From NCBI GenBank assembly GCA_025201705.1, contig MU617490.1, positions 1-12,064 on the forward strand: a stretch of DNA of 12,064 nucleotides, in the 5' to 3' direction. The stretch's first letter is position 1. Each line of letters opens with the position of its first letter. The notes under the pieces were generated by a model. That model was given only the letters and a program-made list of their open reading frames with translations, did not search any database and had not been told where the DNA came from. The translations under genes were made by a program, and so were the position numbers. This document shows, in pieces, positions 196 to 11,947 of the stretch. The stretch comes from Dissophora ornata. Lineage: Eukaryota; Mortierellomycota; Mortierellomycetes; Mortierellales; Mortierellaceae.

Positions 196-201
196 ACCTA
201 C
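196..201 (-). other. Intron donor of the hydrolase-like gene
   Basis: GTAGGT on the minus strand interrupts the frame after two bases of a codon. Reading through it gives an immediate stop at 200-198, while splicing keeps a Trp codon (TG + G). I see no convincing acceptor with continued coding between 195 and 1, so the next exon probably lies outside the window. Confidence 0.6.
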
Positions 202-1019
202 CAGTGCATCATATTGGACCTTCCAATTTCCTCAAACTTCGCGGGCTGGGCCGTCCGTCCTGTATCAAACCACGTCTCGACCCACTTCTTTGCTCCTTCG
301 CCTCTGTCAATCGTCTCGAGGCATCTTTGAAAGAGCTCCCGTCGCTCCTGTTTGGTCTTTGGACCCTTCGGGACCCGGTCCACCACCTGCGCATGAGCAA
401 GTCTTGTCCAGAAGTGAATATAGAACAACAACTCACTCGCCATCCAGATGTGGAAGAGGGAGACAATCCAAGCCAAGGTCTGGTGTGACGAGATGAAAGC
501 CAGGATCGGGTTCAGCACCGGGTCCAGTCGAGCGCGCAGAGGCTCGAGTGCAATGAAGTACCGATATCCTGGGATGTTGACAGGGTCACGATAGCCATGA
601 CTTTCCAGGAACGTAGCCAACGCGAGCAGAGCGCTCGTCGCTGGCGACAGGTTGAAGGAATCGGTTTCAGGAAATGGTGGGACGATGTCGTCAAGAGAGC
701 TGGAGGCTGCTGCCGATGCCGCTGTTACTGCTGCTACCGCAAAAGATGATACAGCGGCCATTGAGTTGAGTGGGGGCATGGCTACTGCTGTGGCGGTGGG
801 GCTGGGCACGCTGGATAGATATTGTACATGATGAGCAGTTGTGGAATTGGATTGGAGTAGGTGGAGGACGACGGGGACGAGATTCAAAAGGGTGTCGAGG
901 GGCGTCTCCTTATAGGCGATCATGTACGAAAAGTAGCCGGTGGCAAGGGGGACAATGGCAGCGAGAAGCAGCCCCAGAGAGCGCACGGCGCTCCTGGTAA
1001 CAAGGTGATCTACGATCAT
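202..1019 (-). CDS. Alpha/beta-hydrolase-like membrane protein, first exon (partial gene)
   Basis: This open frame encodes 272 complete codons plus two bases and then meets a good donor (GTAGGT, starting at 201), so the gene continues off the left edge. Residues about 14-36 are a hydrophobic N-terminal anchor. Residues 81-109 are an Ala/Ser-rich linker. Residues about 182-204 are a second hydrophobic, aromatic-rich helix. The last part carries an LFQRCLE stretch (229-235), a WVETWF stretch (246-251) and KFEEIGRSNMMHW (261-273). That order resembles the region ahead of the catalytic domain in fungal membrane-anchored alpha/beta hydrolases, where the GR-N-W block is followed by the hydrolase fold. 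The nucleophile elbow and catalytic triad would lie outside the window, so activity cannot be judged. The ATG at 1019 is the first after the leader and precedes the membrane helix. The family call is from memory of similar proteins, and the function is inference. Confidence 0.6.
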
Positions 1020-1423: not shown

Positions 1424-2148
1424 CTACGGGCTGAACTCTTAACCCGCGGAGTAAATAAACAAAAAAAAAGAGATGGGGTTTTGTGCCGCCACCGTCTTGT
1501 TTCGGCGAGATTTGATCTACCGCCCTAGGACGTTATTGAGGCAAGGAATGTACGATGATGTAGGATGTGTGTAAGCATTGGGCATATAGACTACAAGCCA
1601 TGGTTGCTTACCCATCAAAGACTTCAACTCGCAGACAAAGCACACAAAAGTCTGCGACCAACAGAAAAAAGGAAAGAAACCCCCTGAATGCCTTTTGGTG
1701 CTGTTTGTTCACTGCAGACAGCGTTCCAAGGGCAGCATTCGAGTTCACTTTCATGTCCTCGATTTGTATCCGCCCTGCTTTGCACGTACCAATCTCATAT
1801 CCTCAATTACCCATATGGGTCGCACTCACAGATCCAACAAATAATCCCGTCTAGTGCAAAGCAAGATGTGTGTATACACAGTAGCATAGTAGTAGCATGT
1901 AATAAAAGACAAAAATAACCCATCGCTCACACGACCGCGCATCTACTCGTCAAAAAAGACCTACCCAAATGCACTCCCCCAAAAGAAAAACAACAACAAA
2001 TCCGTGCATTGTAAACCGTGGCCAGTGTCAGGAAGCAGTATCAACACGGAACCACGCTTCCGCCTGGCCCCCTCAGCTAGATATTTCCAAAAAAAACACA
2101 AAGTCGTTGTTTAGGAAACAGGGCAAAAACACACCCTTGAAAGAGAAG
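1424..2148. other. Intergenic stretch without a recognised gene
   Basis: I find no open frame with protein-like composition, no RNA gene and no repeat of note between the hydrolase promoter and the tRNA gene. A-rich runs occur at several points. The run of 8 A at 2089-2096 and the run of 5 A at 2125-2129 belong to the 3' side of the tRNA. Confidence 0.5.
2125..2129 (-). terminator. RNA polymerase III terminator of tRNA-Lys
   Basis: This is the first run of five T on the minus strand after the tRNA 3' end, about 20 nt downstream. A second run of eight T at 2096-2089 would act as backup. Confidence 0.65.
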
Positions 2149-2221
2149 CGCCCAACGTGGGGGTCGAACCCACAGCCTTCAGATTAAGAGTCTGACGCTC
2201 TACCGATTGAGCTAGCCGGGC
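2149..2221 (-). tRNA. tRNA-Lys (anticodon CTT)
   Basis: The minus strand folds into a complete 73-nt cloverleaf with no intron. The acceptor stem is GCCCGGC paired with GTTGGGC (two G-U pairs), with discriminator G at 2149. The D arm has stem GCTC/GAGC. The anticodon stem is TCAGA/TCTGA with loop CTCTTAA, giving anticodon CTT at 2188-2186, which reads AAG (lysine). The T arm is GTGGG-TTCGACC-CCCAC. The internal pol III A box (TAGCTCAATCGG) and B box (GGTTCGACCCC) are both recognisable. CCA is not encoded, as expected for a eukaryotic nuclear gene. Confidence 0.97.
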
Positions 2222-3280: not shown

Positions 3281-4153
3281 ATGAGTGACTGGCGCTTGGA
3301 CACTTGCCGCAGTCGACCCTATTACGCCTCAATCTCTCGCTCTAGCCCTTAATCTCCACCGCGACTACTGGTATGGCGAATACCCACCCTCAGCTCCGGT
3401 CGAGGTCTTCGTAGGTGCAGAAGGCTTTGCTCTTTGCCTAGTACTCCCATGTACCTGTCACTGCTCATCCAATACCATGACTGTGATGGACGCATCGGTC
3501 GGACGCCTTGGCCCTTCTACTATGCTGCCTCGGCGGTGACTGCGGCTGGGACTGTGAGCACCTTTCATACCCAGGCTCCGTCTGGGGTCGATCTATTGAA
3601 AGCGACTAAAGCAGTGGCCACTAAACTTCTGTACTCTAAAACACGAACTAACTCAATGATGAACGTCACCCAAGTGCAAGAGCGAACTCAGAATTCTGGC
3701 CACAGCAACAAAATTGGTGGTATGAGGAGCAAAGGTGGCAGCATCGGCAAGTCCTCTGGCGGAAAATTGGTATTTAAAACGCCTCTCACAGCTCAGACGT
3801 ATACGGGCGCATGTTCCTACTCCTTTAAATCAACAGGTCGAGTGAGCGATGAGGCGGAGGAGTTTGAGGTTGAAGACGAGGTCAAGAGCTCTGTATTTTT
3901 ATCTCCATCGATAGGATTATGTCCGCCTCTGCCCACTCCCAGTCAATTTCCTTTGCCATCCTGACCACTACGCTGTTTGACAGGTTCTCCTCCTACATGG
4001 GGTCCCTCTACTGTCAAAACAACCAATAAAAAATCACTGCCTCAAGAATTCTACATGTCAGAGCTGCAAAAGTATTCAGAAGACAAGGTGGACAGGCGCT
4101 CCCACAATCGTACCAAGGAGCTGAAGAAGGCTCGAACCGAGGCCCTAATATAA
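3281..4153 (+). CDS. Tandem family gene A; 5' part disrupted or unresolved, possibly a pseudogene
   Basis: This is an unrecognised family member. The 3' part is clear. The frame open from 3353 to 3920 matches gene E: PW-x-FY at about 3502-3516, an HSN-KxxG stretch near 3704, a KL-x-F-x(2)-PLTA block and a FLSP block. Removing a 63-nt intron (3921-3983) then joins it to the shared C-terminal module with K-x-D-x-R-x(2)-N-x(4)-L-K starting at 4085, and TAA at 4151. The 5' part is not simple. The ATG at 3281 opens MSDW, similar to the internal MGDW of gene D, but meets TAA at 3350. A second frame, with a YG-x(2)-P stretch resembling gene E, is open from 3285 to 3539. Either extra short introns or frameshifts are needed. 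The gene is shorter than E. I favour a decaying copy, with a multi-exon gene as the alternative. Confidence 0.5.
3921..3983 (+). other. Predicted intron in gene A (63 nt)
   Basis: The donor is GTCCGC and the acceptor is TTTGACAG. A CTGAC branch-like site lies at 3961-3965, about 20 nt before the acceptor. Splicing joins the upstream frame (one base into a codon) to the frame with the conserved C-terminal motif. The product then aligns end to end with intronless gene E (FLSP...GPST...K-x-D-x-R). No other GT in the preceding 50 bases has the right phase. Confidence 0.55.
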
Positions 4154-4238
4154 CAATTGGCAACAACCGACGATTCTGGAAATGCACTTGGCTTCAAATG
4201 AAAAAACAGGTTGCCAAATTAGGAAAATGAATTATCAG

Positions 4239-4393
4239 AAGTCGAACGTCAACCTCATCAACCTTTCCTTCTTCAAGTCGAACCTCATCAACCTTTCCTT
4301 CCTCAAGCCGAACCTCACCAACCTTTTCTTCTTCATTTCAGCCTCATTAACCTTTTCTTCCTCAAGTCGAACCTCATCAACCTTTTTTTCTCC
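4239..4393 (+). repeat. Five-copy 30-bp pyrimidine-rich tandem repeat upstream of gene B
   Basis: The units begin AAGTCGAAC and contain CTCATCAACCTTT. They lie at 4239-4274 (36 nt, with a 6-nt insertion), 4275-4304, 4305-4334, 4335-4363 (29 nt, most diverged) and 4364-4393. The array sits 200-350 nt before the ATG of gene B, in its promoter or leader. The frame is open through it, but the encoded Leu/Phe/Asn repeat is probably not translated. Gene C, the close duplicate of B, lacks it. Confidence 0.85.
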
Positions 4394-4491
4394 TCACCAC
4401 TTTCAACCGCCATCACTTCCATCTACACAGCAGCTCGTATATCAACATCCCTTCAGAGCGCCCTTTCAGAGAAGACACCCCGCCCACGTAC

Positions 4492-4586
4492 TTCCTCTTC
4501 AAACGAGCGAAATTTCCAAGCGCCAATCGGTCGTATCCATCGTGCATCCTGACACACGAAAGCATCGTTTTCAACTGGGTGAAGCC
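4492..4586 (+). promoter_or_regulatory. Conserved leader of gene B, shared with gene C
   Basis: The stretch from TTCCTCTT through the ATG is nearly identical to 6307-6380 ahead of gene C, apart from a 21-nt deletion in C and a few substitutions, one of which creates an in-frame TAA in C (6315). The stop in C shows this is untranslated leader at least in C. Confidence 0.55.
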
Positions 4587-5547
4587 ATGGCAATCCACGA
4601 CCAACCCGATTATGAGCTGAGCGATATTAGCGAAGACCAATGCATCGCGTTCGACGAGTTAATCGACGAGTTCATCGACTTTTCGGCCGGCTCGAACTCT
4701 GAATTGACTCCTGAGCAACCGCGCCAGCAAATTACGTCGAATCACCCAGATGCTTCTGGTATGAATACCCGAGAGCTACCATCTGAGGCCACGCCCGCAA
4801 CTTCAATAGAAAGTTTGCTTTCTTCTGTGGTGGGTAACGATGCCAATGGCTTCATGCCCACACTTTCAGGCTCTACTCAGCATACCCTTAAAGACGTTGT
4901 CGCTGATTGCGGTTCCGTGGCGCCCACATTTCCACACCCGATTGTCGGATCGAGCTCGTCATATGCGCCATACACGTATGAAGAGAGCCGCTGCAAGGAC
5001 TACAATTATGGCATCCATGGCGGCGTTACGGATGACGCTCATTACCTTCCCTCCATGATTCCGACCGTTGGCGAGCCTGAGCGGGGCGGGCCAGTGACCC
5101 CACCGCGCGAGAACGGCTACAATCTTCAGCCCGTCGAGATCCCGCCTTCCATAAATGGCTCGCCAATGAAGTCTCCGGAAGATCGAACCAGGGACTTGGT
5201 ATGCGAAAACCCCTTCAAGAAAAATTCCAACATACAACCCACGCATGATGAGTAGTGTAACCGCTTAACGCTCTATGTCCAACATCCTGTTTACCAACAT
5301 GATATAGCCAAAGAATTCTCACCCAACGATCGCGAACAGAGATACAACACACAGCAGCCCCTCAGTGTACTTGTGGGCCCCGATTAATGATCATCTCGAA
5401 ACCAAGGGTGATGGACGAAAAAATAACGCGCTACATAAGCTAAAGCAAGCTCAAAAGGAAGCAGGACTTTCTGTTGGGACGAAAAATAGGGCATCGAAAT
5501 CGAAACAGGCCTCGAGGCCCTCCCACCATCCATACCAAAGTGAATAG
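4587..5547 (+). CDS. Tandem family gene B (two exons, 283 residues)
   Basis: I do not recognise the protein. Exons are 4587-5198 and 5308-5547, joined in phase 0. The start at 4587 is the first ATG after the C/T leader, has a strong context (GAAGCC-ATG-GCA), and aligns with the starts of C and E. Residues 22-32 form an acidic-hydrophobic patch (FDELIDEFIDF). The body is Ser/Thr/Pro-rich. A YNYG stretch lies near 150, followed by VTPPRENGY and VEIPPSINGSP. Exon 2 carries the family module, with K237, D239, R241, N244, L249 and K250, then a basic tail rich in Lys, Ser and Arg. Reading through the intron would instead end at 5255 and lose the module. It sits 434 nt after A and is the duplicate partner of C. 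A nuclear or regulatory role is possible, but nothing shown fixes it. Confidence 0.72.
5199..5307 (+). other. Intron in gene B (109 nt)
   Basis: The donor is GTATGC, a branch-like CTTAAC lies at 5264-5269, and the acceptor is ATATAG. It has the same length as the intron of gene C and is about 90% identical to it (11 differences by eye). The first 11 codons after the donor stay open in both genes with only one conservative change. Confidence 0.8.
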
Positions 5548-5672
5548 TGACAACACTGCAACGCGCAAAATTAATTCTATCCATTTAATCTCAAGTTGCG
5601 ACCGGTGACAATGACGCATAAACTAGACAGCCAACAAATTGTGGGAACGATGGTGCGCGTAAAATATAGACA

Positions 5673-5678
5673 AATAAA
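5673..5678 (+). terminator. Candidate polyadenylation signal of gene B
   Basis: AATAAA lies about 125 nt after the stop codon of gene B, in AT-rich sequence. It is a consensus hexamer, but fungal signals are loose. Confidence 0.4.
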
Positions 5679-6308
5679 GATATATGCTTATCTTAGATAT
5701 CTTTTCATCGACAGATCCGACCGTGCAAACGTGGCATTATATCCATCCACGTGTTCATTCATGTCGCCCAGCGAAATACCAGAAGTAACAACAGCCAAAC
5801 TCTTTCAATCATACCTTGCCTGGAGAGGGGGACATTCTTGCCTCCACCTCCACCTCCACCTCTACTTCCGCCACTCCACTTCGACTTTCACCTCTCCACC
5901 TCCTGCGTCTTCTACCGTCACCAACGCTCCAGCCTTTGTTCCTTCTTCAATTTTCCCTTCTATCGTGGTTGCTTCTCATGGTTTCTGCCACACCCCCCAC
6001 GAAGAGACCCAGGAGTTGATTACCGGGCGTGATATGTCCAAAAACAGAGTTCCACGCGAAGCGTACAATTCCCAATAAGAATAAATTAAATTAAATCCAT
6101 ACTAAGGCCATTGGGGCCGTTGAGGCAGATTTAAATGAACACGAGCTGCATACCTCGCTTTCTCTTCCTTCATTTACCAAGTTCGACCACCAACATCCCT
6201 CGGCGTCCACACAGACGATATAACACATATTCCACAACCTCTGAAACCATATTTCAACAGCCCATCCAATTGCCTTTTCAAAGTAGAAACCCTGTCCTAT
6301 ACACAGTT
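5679..6308. other. Intergenic stretch between B and C, with CCTCCA microsatellite
   Basis: No gene is supported. A C/T-rich block contains a (CCTCCA) repeat of three perfect units and one imperfect unit at 5841-5864, which makes three overlapping Pro/Leu/Ser-rich frames open by composition. A TTTAAAT sequence at 6130-6136 and a GATATAAC sequence at 6219-6226 are weak candidates for the gene C core promoter. Confidence 0.5.
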
Positions 6309-6380
6309 CCTCTTTAAACGAGCGAAATTTCCATCGCACATCCTGACACACGAAAGCATCGTTTTCAACTGAGTGAAGCC

Positions 6381-7332
6381 ATGGCGAACCACGGTATACC
6401 CGTTTATGAATCAAGCGTTACTGCCGAGGACCAACGCGCCGCGCTCGGGAAACAGCTCTTTGGCTTTTCGGCTGGCTCGAACTCTGAATTGGCTCCTGAG
6501 CAATCGCGTCAGCAAATTTCGTCAGAGTGCCACCTAAATCCTCTTGGTATGAATACCCAAGCGCTCACACCTTTATCAACATCATTTGAAGTTACGCTTG
6601 CGACATTACTAGAAAGTTCGCATTCTGCGATGGATAACGACACTAACGACTTCATGGCCATATCGACAAAATCTACTCTGCATGCCCTTTCAAACGCCAC
6701 AGCTACCAACCTGAACCTTACAGACGTTGCCGCTGCTTGCAGTTTCACGGTGCTCACATATCCACACTTGGAAGCGCCGATTGTCAAATCGAACTCGCCA
6801 TATGTAGTACGTACGTATGAAGAGAGCTGCTACATGGGCTACAATTATGGCATCCCAAGTGGCGTTACGCATGACGCTCAGTACCTTCACTCCATGATTC
6901 CGACCGTTGGTGAACCTGAGCGGGGCGGGCCAGTGACCCCACCGCGCGAGAACGGCTACAATTTTCAGCCCGTCGAGATCCCGCCTTCCATAAATGGCTC
7001 GCCAACAAAGTCCCCGGAAGATCAAATCAGGAACTTGGTATGCGAAAACCCCTATAAGAAAAATTCCAACATGTAACCCACGCATGATGTGTAGTATAAC
7101 CGCTTAACATTCTATGTCCAACATTCTGTTTGCTAACATGATATAGCCAAAGAATCCTCCCCCAACGGCCGCGAACAGAGATACAACACGCAGCAGCCCC
7201 TCAGAATATCCTGGTGGTGTCTTTTTTGACCAGCCTTATGATCATTTCAAAGCCAAGAGTGATGGACGAAAGCACAATGAGCAGCACAAGCTAAAGCGAG
7301 CGAAAGCGGATGCAGGATCCAGTATGAAATAA
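6381..7332 (+). CDS. Tandem family gene C (two exons, 280 residues)
   Basis: This is an unrecognised protein and the closest relative of B. Exons are 6381-7037 and 7147-7332, joined in phase 0. The ATG has the same strong context as B (GAAGCC-ATG-GCG), and an in-frame TAA at 6315 closes the frame upstream. The body is rich in Ser, Thr and Asn. It shares with B an FSAGSNSEL block (residues 29-37), the TYEES and YNYG stretches, VTPPRENGY and VEIPPSINGSP. Residues 4-28 differ strongly from B and lack the acidic patch. Exon 2 gives the family module, with K256, D258, R260, N263, L268 and K269, then a short Ala/Lys tail. Intron retention would stop at 7076 and lose the module. Function is unknown. 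Confidence 0.72.
7038..7146 (+). other. Intron in gene C (109 nt)
   Basis: The donor is GTATGC and the acceptor is ATATAG, with a consensus-like GCTAAC branch site about 10 nt before the acceptor and a CTTAAC further upstream. It is the homologue of the gene B intron, with equal length and position. Confidence 0.8.
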
Positions 7333-8020
7333 CTGCAAAAGTCGAATCCTGACAACACATCCACATGCATAATTCATGTGGAGAACAGCAACAACGACAT
7401 GCGAACTAGATGAACAATAGCAGAATATTAGACAGCACACAAAACTTTATACAAATGAAGACATAGATATTTTTAGATTTGAAAGAGGTGATTGACTACA
7501 ACCATATAGGCCTTTTTTTTTTATATTGTAAATGGGATCCTATTTCACAAAATATCTTCTACAAGAATCAATGCATCCTCACCCAACTACTGCGTTTGAG
7601 GCGTCCTGCTCCTTATCCCACATCACAAAAGTAGCTATCTGTCTCATACGTGTTCCACTACACAGACACTGTATCTACTAATCCAGATGCAACGTCAATA
7701 GTCAGTTCGTCAGTTCGTTTTGTTCAGCTGAAAATATCCTCTGTGATGATGGATACACGTGGGCCTTTGCGGTTTGCTTGGTCTCCATTGCAATTAGTGC
7801 ATGATGGATATTGTACCGCCGGCGTTGAAAAGATAGAGAAATGAAAATTGAGCTGAAAGCACCTACGGTATCGCCAAAAATGTTGTTATGTCTCTCATTT
7901 CTAAATTCAGGAAGCAATGCATGCTGGGGTTTGTCGTCTCCTCTGCTCACTTGCTCACTCTTATTCTCACTTCACATTCGCCTCCTCTTCTTCATCCCCA
8001 CTCGCACGCCTGTTCTGCGC
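7333..8020. other. Intergenic stretch between C and D
   Basis: I see no gene here. The part nearest C is AT-rich with a run of T near 7513-7522. The part nearest D becomes C/T-rich from about 7930. An open frame extends upstream of D through this region only because pyrimidine-rich DNA has few stops. Confidence 0.5.
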
Positions 8021-8052
8021 TATACTCTCTCTCTCTCCCTCTCTCCCTCTTA
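8021..8052 (+). promoter_or_regulatory. TATA-like sequence and CT tract of gene D
   Basis: A TATA (8021-8024) runs directly into an almost pure (CT)n/CCCT tract of about 28 nt. CT tracts just before the transcription start are common in basidiomycete promoters. The first ATG after it is 8113. Confidence 0.4.
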
Positions 8053-8112
8053 ACAAACCCCGCAGCCAACATATCTGAACGTTACAGCTATACCCAACGC
8101 GCAAAACGTAGT

Positions 8113-9342
8113 ATGTGTGTTTTTGAGGATGCGGAAACCCGAGTCCACGGTATATCGGACGAAGCGATGGGCGACTGGGTTTGCGAATTCTCGGACATGA
8201 ATGGCGGGAATGTCAGTTGCAACTCTTCCAGCTATGTCATTGACGCAGAGCAAGTTTATGACGGCCAACAGCAAGAGGGGTACATCGTGAGAAGTCCCGA
8301 ACAGTCAACTTTGTTCAATCCAAACTGTAGCATCTCTGTTGGTGACTTTAATTGTCAGTTTCAAACCGACCAAGTTCAGGTGAACTATGCTCAGGTCCAC
8401 CAACGATCAAGTATTCCAACTATAGTCGATGATGATGAATTTGCCCAGCGTTCTATCGATGATCTTCTGTATTCAGAGCCTGACTGGCTCCTGATCCCGA
8501 GCGACAAGATCCCCCCCGATTTGAGCGTAACTGTAGTCCCCGTGGCTCCACCTCCCTTCACACCGCTCGCTGGCATGCAAGATATGACTGATGCAACCGT
8601 GAATAGCCCGCAAACATCGCTCTTCCCACAGGGCACTATTCAACTGTCGCAAGGATCTACTTGTCCTTTCTTGATGTTTGAGCAGACACCGATGTTGTGT
8701 ACACTGCCGCTCTATTCGCTTCGCGACGGCACTCAAAGCGCTCCTGCTTCCTTCCGCCAACATCCCACTGACGCCATATCCACGACATTTCCAGACCCTG
8801 CGAATTTGGGTCAGTCATGTGTAAGTGATGTTACCGACATGTCGTTTCTGGGTAACGACTCGTCTGTAACTACCGCACAAACAATTGACCAGTTGTGGCC
8901 TTTTGCTGTGGAGGCTCCAGGATTGCTGTCAATGCGCTTCTCGTCGGGAATGCCAGCGCAAGCGGCTTCAGGTTCCACAGTAGACGTAACATCCATCGGA
9001 TCATATTACAACAGCGACTTCCAGCTACCATTGCCATCACCATTGCCATCGCCATTGCCGTCGCCATCGCCTACAAACCTCTTTGCTCCCTCTCGACGCG
9101 AACCGGCGCCGCTATCTCATTTGCCACCAACCTCAGGTTCAACAATCCCTTGTCAAGTTCCAACTCCAGGAAAGCCATCGACTACCCCACCAACAACGCC
9201 TCGTGTAGCATCGCCGCGCAAGTACCACATATTGCCCTCCTACCAGCACACGTTCCCGAAGGTGGACGGACGCACGTGCAACGCTCTAAGAATACTAAAA
9301 CAGGAGGAGGCGAGAATGGAAGAGAAGCGAATAGGGGTTTAG
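8113..9342 (+). CDS. Tandem family gene D (single exon, about 409 residues)
   Basis: I do not recognise the protein. I chose the first ATG after the CT tract (8113). The ATG at 8167 (MGDW) has a better context (GAAGCG-ATG-GGC), like those of B and C, and is a real alternative giving 391 residues. Counting from 8113, residues 105-127 form an acidic-hydrophobic patch (VDDDEF then IDDLLYSEPDWLL). The body is Ser/Thr/Pro/Gln-rich. Residues 306-320 are a Pro-Leu-Pro-Ser repeat, followed by a Pro/Thr-rich linker. The C-terminus aligns with E: an SPRKY start, then K383, D385, R387, N390, L395 and K396, and an Arg/Glu tail that departs from the Ala-rich pattern of the others. No intron is needed. Function is unknown. 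Confidence 0.7.
   Translation: MCVFEDAETRVHGISDEAMGDWVCEFSDMNGGNVSCNSSSYVIDAEQVYDGQQQEGYIVRSPEQSTLFNPNCSISVGDFNCQFQTDQVQVNYAQVHQRSSIPTIVDDDEFAQRSIDDLLYSEPDWLLIPSDKIPPDLSVTVVPVAPPPFTPLAGMQDMTDATVNSPQTSLFPQGTIQLSQGSTCPFLMFEQTPMLCTLPLYSLRDGTQSAPASFRQHPTDAISTTFPDPANLGQSCVSDVTDMSFLGNDSSVTTAQTIDQLWPFAVEAPGLLSMRFSSGMPAQAASGSTVDVTSIGSYYNSDFQLPLPSPLPSPLPSPSPTNLFAPSRREPAPLSHLPPTSGSTIPCQVPTPGKPSTTPPTTPRVASPRKYHILPSYQHTFPKVDGRTCNALRILKQEEARMEEKRIGV
9028..9071 (+). repeat. 12-bp minisatellite encoding Pro-Leu-Pro-Ser in gene D
   Basis: Three full units of CCATTGCCATCG-type sequence (9028-9039, 9040-9051, 9052-9063) are followed by a partial fourth. Units differ only at single bases and stay in frame, so the array can change length without disrupting the protein. 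Confidence 0.85.
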
Positions 9343-9421
9343 CTCCGGAGCTTCAGAGCCGATGAAAAACAAAGCCGCTGTATTGTCTAAACAGTGATCA
9401 TCTGCAGGGTTTCCACGGAAG

Positions 9422-9427
9422 AATAAA
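9422..9427 (+). terminator. Candidate polyadenylation signal of gene D
   Basis: AATAAA lies about 80 nt after the stop codon of gene D. Confidence 0.45.
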
Positions 9428-9429
9428 AT

Positions 9430-10600
9430 GTGTGCACCATGAATTATTTGAAACAAACGGCTCAAATTGGACTATGCCACCTTCCTTTCATGGTCAGGTC
9501 GCTGTGAATGGGCTGGGTTGAGCCTAGATGATATGACGAGGCACATAATCTACGGGCAACGTGGAAGAAAAAATTGGAAGAGATGTTGGTAACTTTACGG
9601 AAACGACAGAAAAGACGGGCAACTTTGGTTGTTGAAAAAATGCCCGTATCAAATGCCTGCAAAGCATAAAGCGCGAGAACATAGAGTACTACGTGATTTC
9701 CAGGGGCGTTCTCGCTTGTTGGTCGGAGACTGATAGATTTCACATCTGTTCTTGTCGATGTCAAATAATTTGCCCTTTTGGGGATGCCATTTTGGGAAAT
9801 GCATGCGAGTCAATCTTTCGATTTTGATGTTGCTCACCCCTGAACATTGAGAACGAATCAAGCTGCTTCTTTGATGCCCTGTTCCCGAGTGCAGGGGACG
9901 AATCGAGGCTGGTAGCTTTGATGTATACTGAGATAGTGAACCACACACCGCACCCATTCACCCCGTCCTTGACATAGTGGCTCAGTAGATTGTCAATTGT
10001 GCCGTTTTGACGCTCAATGGACCCATGATTCGCCGTATCTGTTTAAGCATGCGATCAATTAATCGAGAAATCTTTTAAGGAGGAGGACAATGGTGAGGCT
10101 AAAAGAGATATTGAATAAGGCAAGAATTGGATCTAGCGATGCGGCTGAAGGTGTTGAGAGGGAAGAGCAAGGGCTCACATTTAAGGGACGAGCCAGATAT
10201 TGCATGGAACCAATCACAGAGTGAACTTTCCAAGTTCCGGGTGCGAGTAGTTGAAGCGCCCACCGAAGCGTTCCACAGGTTGAAACATTTTGAGGGTCAC
10301 CAAACATCCATTTTTGATATTACTGCGGAACAGAGCTTCGCCACGACTTGACAGCACGGATTACGTCGCATCCGCGACTCCTCGGAGTGACCGTCTTTAG
10401 GTAGTTAGCAGCGCGAGACATGATGTGATCCTTCCACCCTGGTACCCCGAAGAAGCTCAAGTAGTCACTAGTTTGTTGCCAAGACGGTATCTAGTCGCGC
10501 TCCCACACTTCACAGGAACAGAGGAGGATCTGTAGTGATTTAGTTAGTGTCGATAAGATCCAGATTAGATCAAATGGCAAATACGGAGGAATGGGAGAAG
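9430..10600. other. Gene-poor stretch between D and E with possible coding remnants
   Basis: No complete gene is supported. On the minus strand, a frame open from 10490 to 10320 has protein-like composition (a GVPGWKDHIMSRAANYL stretch, then a Trp/Arg-rich end). A second minus frame (10307-10059) follows it in another register. On the plus strand, short frames at 10090-10212 and 10127-10348 are open. None matches a family I know. This may be a decayed gene or nothing. Confidence 0.3.
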
Positions 10601-10605
10601 GATAT

Positions 10606-10621
10606 ATTATTATATAATAAT
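10606..10621. repeat. 16-bp AT palindrome in the promoter of gene E
   Basis: ATTATTATATAATAAT is a perfect palindrome about 35 nt upstream of the TATA box of gene E. It could bind a dimeric factor or be simple AT-rich sequence. Confidence 0.35.
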
Positions 10622-10656
10622 GCTGCTCACAAACGCAGGGCGGTTTTGGGATACGG

Positions 10657-10664
10657 TATAAAAG
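10657..10664 (+). promoter_or_regulatory. TATA box of gene E
   Basis: TATAAAAG, followed by a C/T-rich leader with no ATG until 10811, 154 nt downstream. It is the best core promoter element in the window. Confidence 0.65.
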
Positions 10665-10810
10665 GTAAATTGTAGCTTAAATTCCTTTATCTCTTTTTGC
10701 TCCTATCCTATCCACTGTTCCAGGGGTGTAGTTGCAACACCCTTGTAACCATCCAACCTCCCCCCGATAGAAACAAATCACACCATCCCTGCTCTTGCAA
10801 ATAGGAAATA

Positions 10811-11947
10811 ATGTCTATCATACCAAGCAACTCCTATTATTTCGCTTTGCCTGAAGATGAGAGATCGATTGGTTTTGGTACCTCCAAGCCCACAGGTGCC
10901 ATTCTCGACATCAGCGGTAGCTACAGCTACACCGACCCACAGGAGGCGACTGAAGAACGGTATGAAGTTCTAATCCTGATTGAGCTAGACGCAGATGGTC
11001 TGGCAACATATAGCGAGGTTCCCTCTTCCGCTAATTTGACACTCGACACCGAACCACAGCTCCCACTTCATAATGAGCAAGATGGTCGTTTCATTTATGG
11101 AGCTGGTCCAGCATCCTCAACCTTCTCACACCATGAAGACATGAGCCAGGTCTTATCTGGAGGGTGCTTGCCCTATCCCTCGATCCAAACTGCTTCCATG
11201 ACAGCGACGCCCGCGATGAATCTTCCGGTTGCTCCGCTAATGGATATAACTCAAGCGAAGTTTTTTTCCTCTCACTCTACTCCAGCCTTTCGTTTCCCAT
11301 GGTCGTTCTACAATTCGCCCGATGCATTCACGACTCCGGCTGCCTTTCCGCATAATTCCGATTTATATCTCAATTCCATCAGCTATGCTACCACGACGAC
11401 CGCTGACTCTGACATTACAATCGCGAATCAGACCCAACTTCCATCTCCAGGCAATCGACTGATTGCTGGAACCTTTATCGATTCGACGGTGAGCGCAGCT
11501 CATGCACATGTCCAGCCTGAGAACCTTCAGCACAGCAACCAAGCTGGCAAAAATATGAGCGACAAAGGTAGCAACGGCATGTCCACTGTCATGAAGCTGG
11601 AGTTTGCGATGCCGCTCACTGCCGCGTCATTTGAAAAAGAACCTGCTTTCTCATCTAAAAAAGCCAAAGGTTCATCCCAGGAGCCGAATCGCAGACCTGG
11701 CCGCACTCGACTTCCATCGGTGAAGGTCGCGATGGAGGATCCGTTATTTTTAACGCCGTTGATTCATACGATTCCTTCTCAGGGCCCTTTGACTGCCAGA
11801 AAAGTCTCCCGAAACCCACGAAGATACAAGTATTACATTCAAGCTCCCTATATACATTCCAACGTCAAGAAGGATAAACGCGCTTTCAATTCCACCCAAG
11901 AACTAAAGAAGGCTCGAGCCGAAGCGGCTGAACTCAAGGATGACTAG
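10811..11947 (+). CDS. Tandem family gene E (single exon, 378 residues)
   Basis: This is an unrecognised protein and the most intact intronless member. The ATG is the first after the TATA box, with context AATA-ATG-TCT. Its N-terminus fits B and C weakly (Tyr, then Glu-Asp, then a hydrophobic pair). Residues 51-62 are hydrophobic-acidic. The body is Ser/Thr/Pro-rich. Residues 163-167 (PWSFY), 241-243 (HSN), 262-271 (a KL-x-F-x(2)-PLTA block) and 312-315 (FLTP) match gene A. Residues 283-301 are basic (KKAK, then NRRPGRTR) and could be a nuclear localisation signal. The C-terminal module has PRRYKYY at 336-342, then K353, D355, R357, N360, L365 and K366, and an Ala/Glu-rich predicted helix to the end. 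The frame crosses the intron site of A without a break. Function is unknown. Confidence 0.78.
   Translation: MSIIPSNSYYFALPEDERSIGFGTSKPTGAILDISGSYSYTDPQEATEERYEVLILIELDADGLATYSEVPSSANLTLDTEPQLPLHNEQDGRFIYGAGPASSTFSHHEDMSQVLSGGCLPYPSIQTASMTATPAMNLPVAPLMDITQAKFFSSHSTPAFRFPWSFYNSPDAFTTPAAFPHNSDLYLNSISYATTTTADSDITIANQTQLPSPGNRLIAGTFIDSTVSAAHAHVQPENLQHSNQAGKNMSDKGSNGMSTVMKLEFAMPLTAASFEKEPAFSSKKAKGSSQEPNRRPGRTRLPSVKVAMEDPLFLTPLIHTIPSQGPLTARKVSRNPRRYKYYIQAPYIHSNVKKDKRAFNSTQELKKARAEAAELKDD

What the first reader, a model, noticed from the sequence alone, without database searches (positions are those of the whole stretch)
3281..11947. Tandem array of five genes of an unrecognised family sharing a C-terminal K-x-D-x-R-x(2)-N-x(4)-L-K module
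Seen directly: five plus-strand genes in a row all end with the same six residues at fixed spacing. The first motif base is at 4085 in A, 5404 in B (K237), 7255 in C (K256), 9259 in D and 11867 in E. A Tyr-containing stretch precedes the motif, and in all but D an Ala/Lys/Glu-rich tail follows. The bodies are low-complexity and barely alignable between distant copies, yet the end module is kept. I know no named domain with this pattern. Inference: a lineage-specific family expanding by tandem duplication, whose conserved end is the functional part, perhaps a DNA-, RNA- or protein-binding helix.
Basis: partly seen in the sequence, partly recalled or inferred. Interest (0 to 1): 0.75.

Follow-up and report, generated by a model that had tools for sequence, protein, structure and literature searches.

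The report
Fungal orphan proteins sharing C-terminal tail
Five neighbouring genes of a soil fungus encode fast-changing proteins without known domains that all end in the same short conserved tail, a tail found on ten more genes of that genome, two of them resembling transposase-derived DNA-binding genes; what the tail does is not yet known.

Summary
In detail: K-x-D-x-R-x2-N-x4-L-K occurs five times in the window, exactly where stated, and in none of 1000 simulated windows. The genome matches Dissophora ornata, Mortierellomycota. The module is longer than described, about YPxGxxFxxPYx5KxD[GKR]Rx2NxxxxLKxA. I found 15 copies on five contigs: five here, three on C194, five on C196, one each on C525 and C586. 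The last two end Tigger/pogo-like genes (Tc5 HTH, DDE_1); of the other 13, the 11 scanned have no Pfam domain above cut-off. Pooled over seven pairs, synonymous change in the module exceeds nonsynonymous (pS 0.64, pN 0.33), so it looks translated and constrained, while bodies of two close pairs evolve near neutrality. Pfam, NCBIfam and PDB gave no significant match; protein searches returned only D. ornata entries and the window itself. AlphaFold2 gives one confident helix, no fold. Best reading: a docking or dimerisation tail shared by orphan proteins and pogo-derived DNA-binding proteins; the partner is unknown. 'Tandem expansion' is clear only for B and C, and gene A's model is unsafe.

The parts
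3984..4153 (+). Gene A, module-bearing 3' exon (5' part uncertain; upstream open frame from about 3353 to 3920)
   Evidence: intron 3921-3983 is inferred only
4034..4150 (+). Module of A (KVDRRSHNRTKELK at 4085)
4587..5547 (+). Gene B, exons 4587-5198 and 5308-5547 (283 aa)
   Evidence: paralogue of C
5341..5472 (+). Module of B (KGDGRKNNALHKLK at 5404)
6381..7332 (+). Gene C, exons 6381-7037 and 7147-7332 (280 aa)
   Evidence: annotated D. ornata protein P0005 is identical at 278 of 280
7180..7329 (+). Module of C (KSDGRKHNEQHKLK at 7255), on the last exon
8113..9342 (+). Gene D, single exon (409 aa)
9211..9339 (+). Module of D (KVDGRTCNALRILK at 9259)
10811..11947 (+). Gene E, single exon (378 aa)
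11792..11944 (+). Module of E (KKDKRAFNSTQELK at 11867)

Best explanation
The window carries five members of a lineage-restricted fungal family whose only long-range conserved part is a C-terminal tail of about 35 residues: a Tyr/Pro/Phe-rich linear half, an invariant D-x-R, and a basic helix. Shown: the tail is no chance pattern, its reading frame bears the mark of purifying selection, and the same tail stands at the end of two Tigger/pogo-like frames. Inferred: it is a docking or dimerisation element that ties variable, probably disordered bodies, and pogo-derived DNA-binding proteins, to one common intracellular (probably nuclear) partner or to each other, in the way CENP-B carries an added C-terminal dimerisation domain; the bodies can diverge because only the tail has to be recognised.
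For: Motif in 5 of 5 genes, 0 in 1000 simulated windows. A profile of 11 copies found two further copies not used to build it (E about 6e-11 and 6e-10). Both Tigger-linked copies were found by a single-sequence search (E 2.5e-5 and 7.7e-5), with HTH_Tnp_Tc5 and DDE_1 above cut-off in frames of the same genes. Module pS 0.64 against pN 0.33 over 7 disjoint pairs; pS minus pN was above 0 in all 2000 bootstraps. Body net charge negative in 10 of 11 proteins, module positive in 11 of 11. AlphaFold2: one helix, residues 38-55, mean pLDDT 94 over residues 41-50 and 84 over 51-56; whole model 73.7, pTM 0.35. CENPB gained a C-terminal dimerisation domain on a pogo-derived protein (PMC7386202, passages read).
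Against: No partner, localisation or expression datum. For F and G the module shows no lower dN/dS than the body (1.10 against 0.67) and pS and pN are alike (0.14, 0.13). The annotated proteins for the two Tigger-like genes truncate or skip the module (P0002, P0004), so it may not be translated there. Seven other Tigger-like copies show no module in the downstream stretch read. An activation-domain-like stretch, by a score of my own, beats shuffles at 0.02 or better in only 3 of 12 bodies, so the nuclear reading rests mainly on the Tigger link.
Confidence: 0.4

Rival explanations
1. The tail is a nucleic-acid-binding or nuclear-import element: the basic helix after D-x-R contacts DNA, RNA or importin, and the variable bodies are regulators.
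For: Module net positive in 11 of 11 proteins and a confident basic helix; also at the end of genes with DNA-binding domains; acidic-hydrophobic stretches above shuffle in A, B and D.
Against: No known DNA-binding family matches the modules; the most conserved residues are an Asp, an Arg and a Leu with an aromatic/Pro half, not a row of basic residues; 9 of 12 bodies show no significant activation-like stretch.
Confidence: 0.25
2. Transposon origin: the tail began as the C-terminus of a pogo-like transposase, and the orphan proteins are remnants or accessory genes of such elements.
For: Two Tigger-like genes carry the tail; one weakly transposase-like frame (Tc5 HTH below cut-off) lies on the contig of F and G (L016); one C194 copy has an in-frame stop inside the module.
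Against: Of nine Tigger-like copies looked at (13 places found), seven show no tail; the 11 orphan proteins scanned show no transposase domain; the tail is under purifying selection; the two Tigger-linked copies do not group and lie among orphan copies (weak, one on a long branch).
Confidence: 0.17
3. Secreted, host- or bacterium-directed effector family with a conserved terminal signal.
For: Clusters of fast-evolving proteins with one conserved end resemble effector families in outline (analogy only, no call).
Against: No signal-peptide-like stretch in 11 of 11 proteins examined: best 12-residue mean hydropathy in the first 40 residues is -0.56 to 1.17; the tail also stands on transposase-like genes.
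Confidence: 0.07
4. Chance resemblance or untranslated frames.
For: Bodies are low in complexity, and only six positions were first noted.
Against: 0 of 1000 simulated windows, recovery of copies not used in the profile, pS above pN, annotated proteins for C, F and K.
Confidence: 0.02

Closest known systems
Pogo/Tigger-derived host genes with an added domain (CENPB with a C-terminal dimerisation domain; POGK; POGZ), as described in PMC7386202
   Same: Two copies (C525, C586) have a Tc5 HTH and DDE_1 followed by an extra C-terminal module; the annotated P0003 and P0004 also reach the CENP-B_N cut-off.
   Different: No module matches any Pfam family, CENP-B dimerisation included, and the window's five proteins have no transposase part.
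Lineage-specific orphan gene families with rapidly evolving bodies (general kind, recalled)
   Same: Relatives found only in D. ornata, clustered paralogues, body dN/dS near 1 in two close pairs.
   Different: One defined C-terminal module is kept and shared with a second, unrelated gene kind.
PDB 1wol, deposited as '122aa long conserved hypothetical protein' (that it is a HEPN-type protein is recalled)
   Same: A 24-residue stretch with YP...PY, E = 2.9.
   Different: Not significant, a fragment only; judged chance.

Membership tests
Pogo/Tigger-derived proteins | CENP-B_N and/or HTH_Tnp_Tc5 plus DDE_1 | tested here: not met
   Window proteins A-E: no Pfam family up to E 5. Met by the C525 and C586 genes only: DDE_1 and HTH_Tnp_Tc5 above cut-off, CENP-B_N below cut-off in the pieces held.
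CENP-B dimerisation domain | Match to the Pfam C-terminal dimerisation family | tested here: not met
   0 of 14 modules match any Pfam family at E <= 1.
Known DNA-binding families (bZIP, bHLH and others) | Match to a curated profile | tested here: not met
   Pfam: 0 of 14 modules; NCBIfam: one unrelated hit at E 0.2; whole proteins.
Classically secreted effectors | N-terminal signal peptide | tested here: not met
   Hydropathy of the first 40 residues in 11 proteins; a trained predictor was not available, and the start codons of A and G are assumed.
HEPN domain | Significant profile match (catalytic RX4-6H site recalled, not tested) | tested here: not met
   Best PDB match of the module profile E 2.9 over 24 residues.
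One new module family | Statistically supported common C-terminal module in the copies claimed | tested here: met

The most novel reading that the evidence does not exclude
A fungal lineage has spread one C-terminal docking exon onto at least two unrelated gene kinds, variable orphan proteins and pogo-derived DNA-binding proteins, creating a set of adaptors that converge on one partner, possibly a chromatin or transposon-control complex.
Probability: 0.15. Interest if true: 0.7.

Novelty: new variant of a known kind. Interest (0 to 1): 0.42.

Why it matters
Orphan families are usually beyond functional inference. Here a constrained, short, testable module and its presence on transposase-like genes give a handle: the tail can be used as bait to find the partner, and the family is a case for studying how a terminal exon comes to be shared among young genes.

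Tried and rejected
A protein search with E found only the window's own protein. C242 (E 0.04) and C437 (E 0.45) were rejected: the C242 frame scores 4.0 bits, E about 9, against the profile; C437 I judged chance by eye from its frames. 1wol judged chance. Activation-domain reading: 3 of 12 bodies only. Viral contigs with P0005: no relative. Module tree: no strongly supported branch. Literature: the listings (0 papers) showed, by title and start of abstract, nothing on this family; the lists were cut (8 of 9, 10 of 13, 15 of 17, 4 of 5 and 8 of 19 shown) and the library is open-access only. I saw passages of PMC7325037, PMC7386202 and PMC9503022, no whole text. Erosion of the transposase active site in the Tigger-like genes is my impression against a motif recalled from memory; no call tested it and I do not rest on it. 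Copies M (in-frame stop) was left out of the alignment and all counts on it; K, M, N and O were left out of the counts.

Full report
A six-frame scan finds K-x-D-x-R-x2-N-x4-L-K at + strand 4085, 5404, 7255, 9259 and 11867 and nowhere else in the window; 1000 first-order Markov windows gave none. An alignment of the five ends gives exactly those six invariant columns.

Gene models. B and C are two-exon genes, with introns 5199-5307 and 7038-7146; D and E are single frames. C agrees at 278 of 280 residues with annotated protein P0005 of D. ornata, with the same intron removed. A is unsafe: it needs an intron near 3921-3983 to avoid an in-frame TGA, and a start at 3281 is not supported.

Organism. 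A Tigger-like gene of this genome matches Dissophora ornata proteins, the closest at 99% over 84% of the query. Contigs C194 and C196, 45434 and 45322 bases long, have the same lengths as the contigs behind D. ornata proteins P0006 and P0007. The species belongs to Mortierellomycota. That the genome is D. ornata itself is inference.

The family. Protein searches of the same genome with whole proteins and modules and a profile scan of 12 fetched stretches plus the window give 15 copies: A-E (C885), F, G and M (C194), H-L (C196), N (C525) and O (C586). The profile was built from 11 copies and found L and the second part of M unaided, at E about 6e-11 and 6e-10. M has an in-frame stop inside the module and was left out of the 14-row alignment. 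The last two genome searches showed no new copy, but the tool scores only its best candidates, so 15 is a lower bound. Of the 13 orphan copies, 11 were scanned against Pfam (J by its first exon; L and M not scanned), with no family above its cut-off.

Extended module. Over 14 copies the pattern is about YPxGxxFxxPYx5KxD[GKR]Rx2NxxxxLKxA: D and R in 14; L in 13; N and the first P in 12; P and Y of PY in 11 each; F, second K and A in 10; first K in 9; G after D in 8; Y and G of YPxG in 7 each. In B, C, J, K and L the module lies on an exon that starts shortly before it (the splices of J and L are mine, that of K is the annotator's); in D, E, F, G, H and I the frame is continuous.

Link to pogo-like genes. 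N and O lie at the end of frames with DDE_1 hits (5.6e-10, 6.1e-10), next to frames with HTH_Tnp_Tc5 hits (9e-12, 3.2e-9); CENP-B_N stays below its cut-off in these pieces but reaches it in the annotated P0003 and P0004. The N query matched 13 places outside the module at E <= 5e-8, N and O included (four further matches are module only). Of the other 11, I read the downstream stretch of seven (one of 1501 bases, six of 651): none has a module-like match above 7.2 bits. Four were not examined. The annotated proteins P0002 and P0004 truncate or skip the module, so its translation in N and O is not settled.

Selection. In seven disjoint pairs the module has pS 0.64 and pN 0.33; resampling columns 2000 times never reversed this; F/G alone shows no difference, 0.14 and 0.13. 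Body against module dN/dS by pair: B/C 1.03 and 0.65; F/G 0.67 and 1.10; J/L 0.99 and 0.32; A/E 0.41 and 0.32; F/D body saturated, module 0.23. F/G therefore goes against the rule. Between B and C the best-conserved stretch (5028-5357, 88-98% in 60-base windows) spans the exon end and the intron, while the module DNA is 72-75% identical; I read this as a possible gene-conversion tract.

Physical character. Body net charge is negative in 10 of 11 proteins (not A), module positive in 11 of 11; no signal-peptide-like start in 11 of 11 (K, M, N and O not in this count; starts of A and G assumed). AlphaFold2 on the 14-row alignment gives a single confident helix and no fold (mean pLDDT 73.7, pTM 0.35). 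A planned fold of a whole protein could not be run, so disorder of the bodies rests on composition and absence of families.

Known families. Modules: 0 of 14 match Pfam at E <= 1, one unrelated NCBIfam hit at E 0.2, best PDB match E 2.9. Searches of 5.8 billion proteins returned the window's own protein and D. ornata entries only, with the limit that candidates must share exact five-residue words.

Tree. A module tree has no strongly supported branch; D falls with F and G (83/86), O with K (91/86, O on a long branch), and the two Tigger-linked copies form one group in 0% of 200 bootstrap trees. This argues weakly against one recent origin of the Tigger-linked tails and against a purely local expansion of the window's five genes.

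Mechanism. I think most likely a docking or dimerisation tail shared by orphan proteins and pogo-derived DNA-binding proteins. The CENPB precedent, a C-terminal dimerisation domain added to a pogo-derived protein, is described in PMC7386202 (passages). Partner, localisation and expression are unknown; nucleic-acid binding and transposon origin remain live rivals.

Noticed in passing
window 2148-2221, - strand: tRNA-Lys (CTT) gene.
   Followed up: no
window 198-1013, - strand: Open frame of about 271 aa with hydrophobic stretches; no Pfam family above cut-off and no NCBIfam match.
   Followed up: partly
window 4249-4390: Five head-to-tail copies of a roughly 30-base unit upstream of gene B.
   Followed up: no
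window 5028-5357 and the matching stretch of gene C: B and C are 88-98% identical across exon end and intron, more than on either side: possible gene conversion.
   Followed up: partly
G000 contigs C525, C844, C68, C586, C834, C514, C835, C519: Thirteen places matching the DDE part of a Tigger/pogo-like gene, four of them on C525 and two each on C834 and C514; some are annotated in D. ornata as Tigger-derived proteins.
   Followed up: partly
L017 5406-6728: Third C194 copy of the family, with an in-frame stop inside the module: probable pseudogene.
   Followed up: partly
L017 7861-8622: Frame that looks like a voltage-gated proton channel (from reading only, no search).
   Followed up: no
window D (8113-) and L018 H: D and H also resemble each other at the very N-terminus (MxVF...), unlike the other members.
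   Followed up: no
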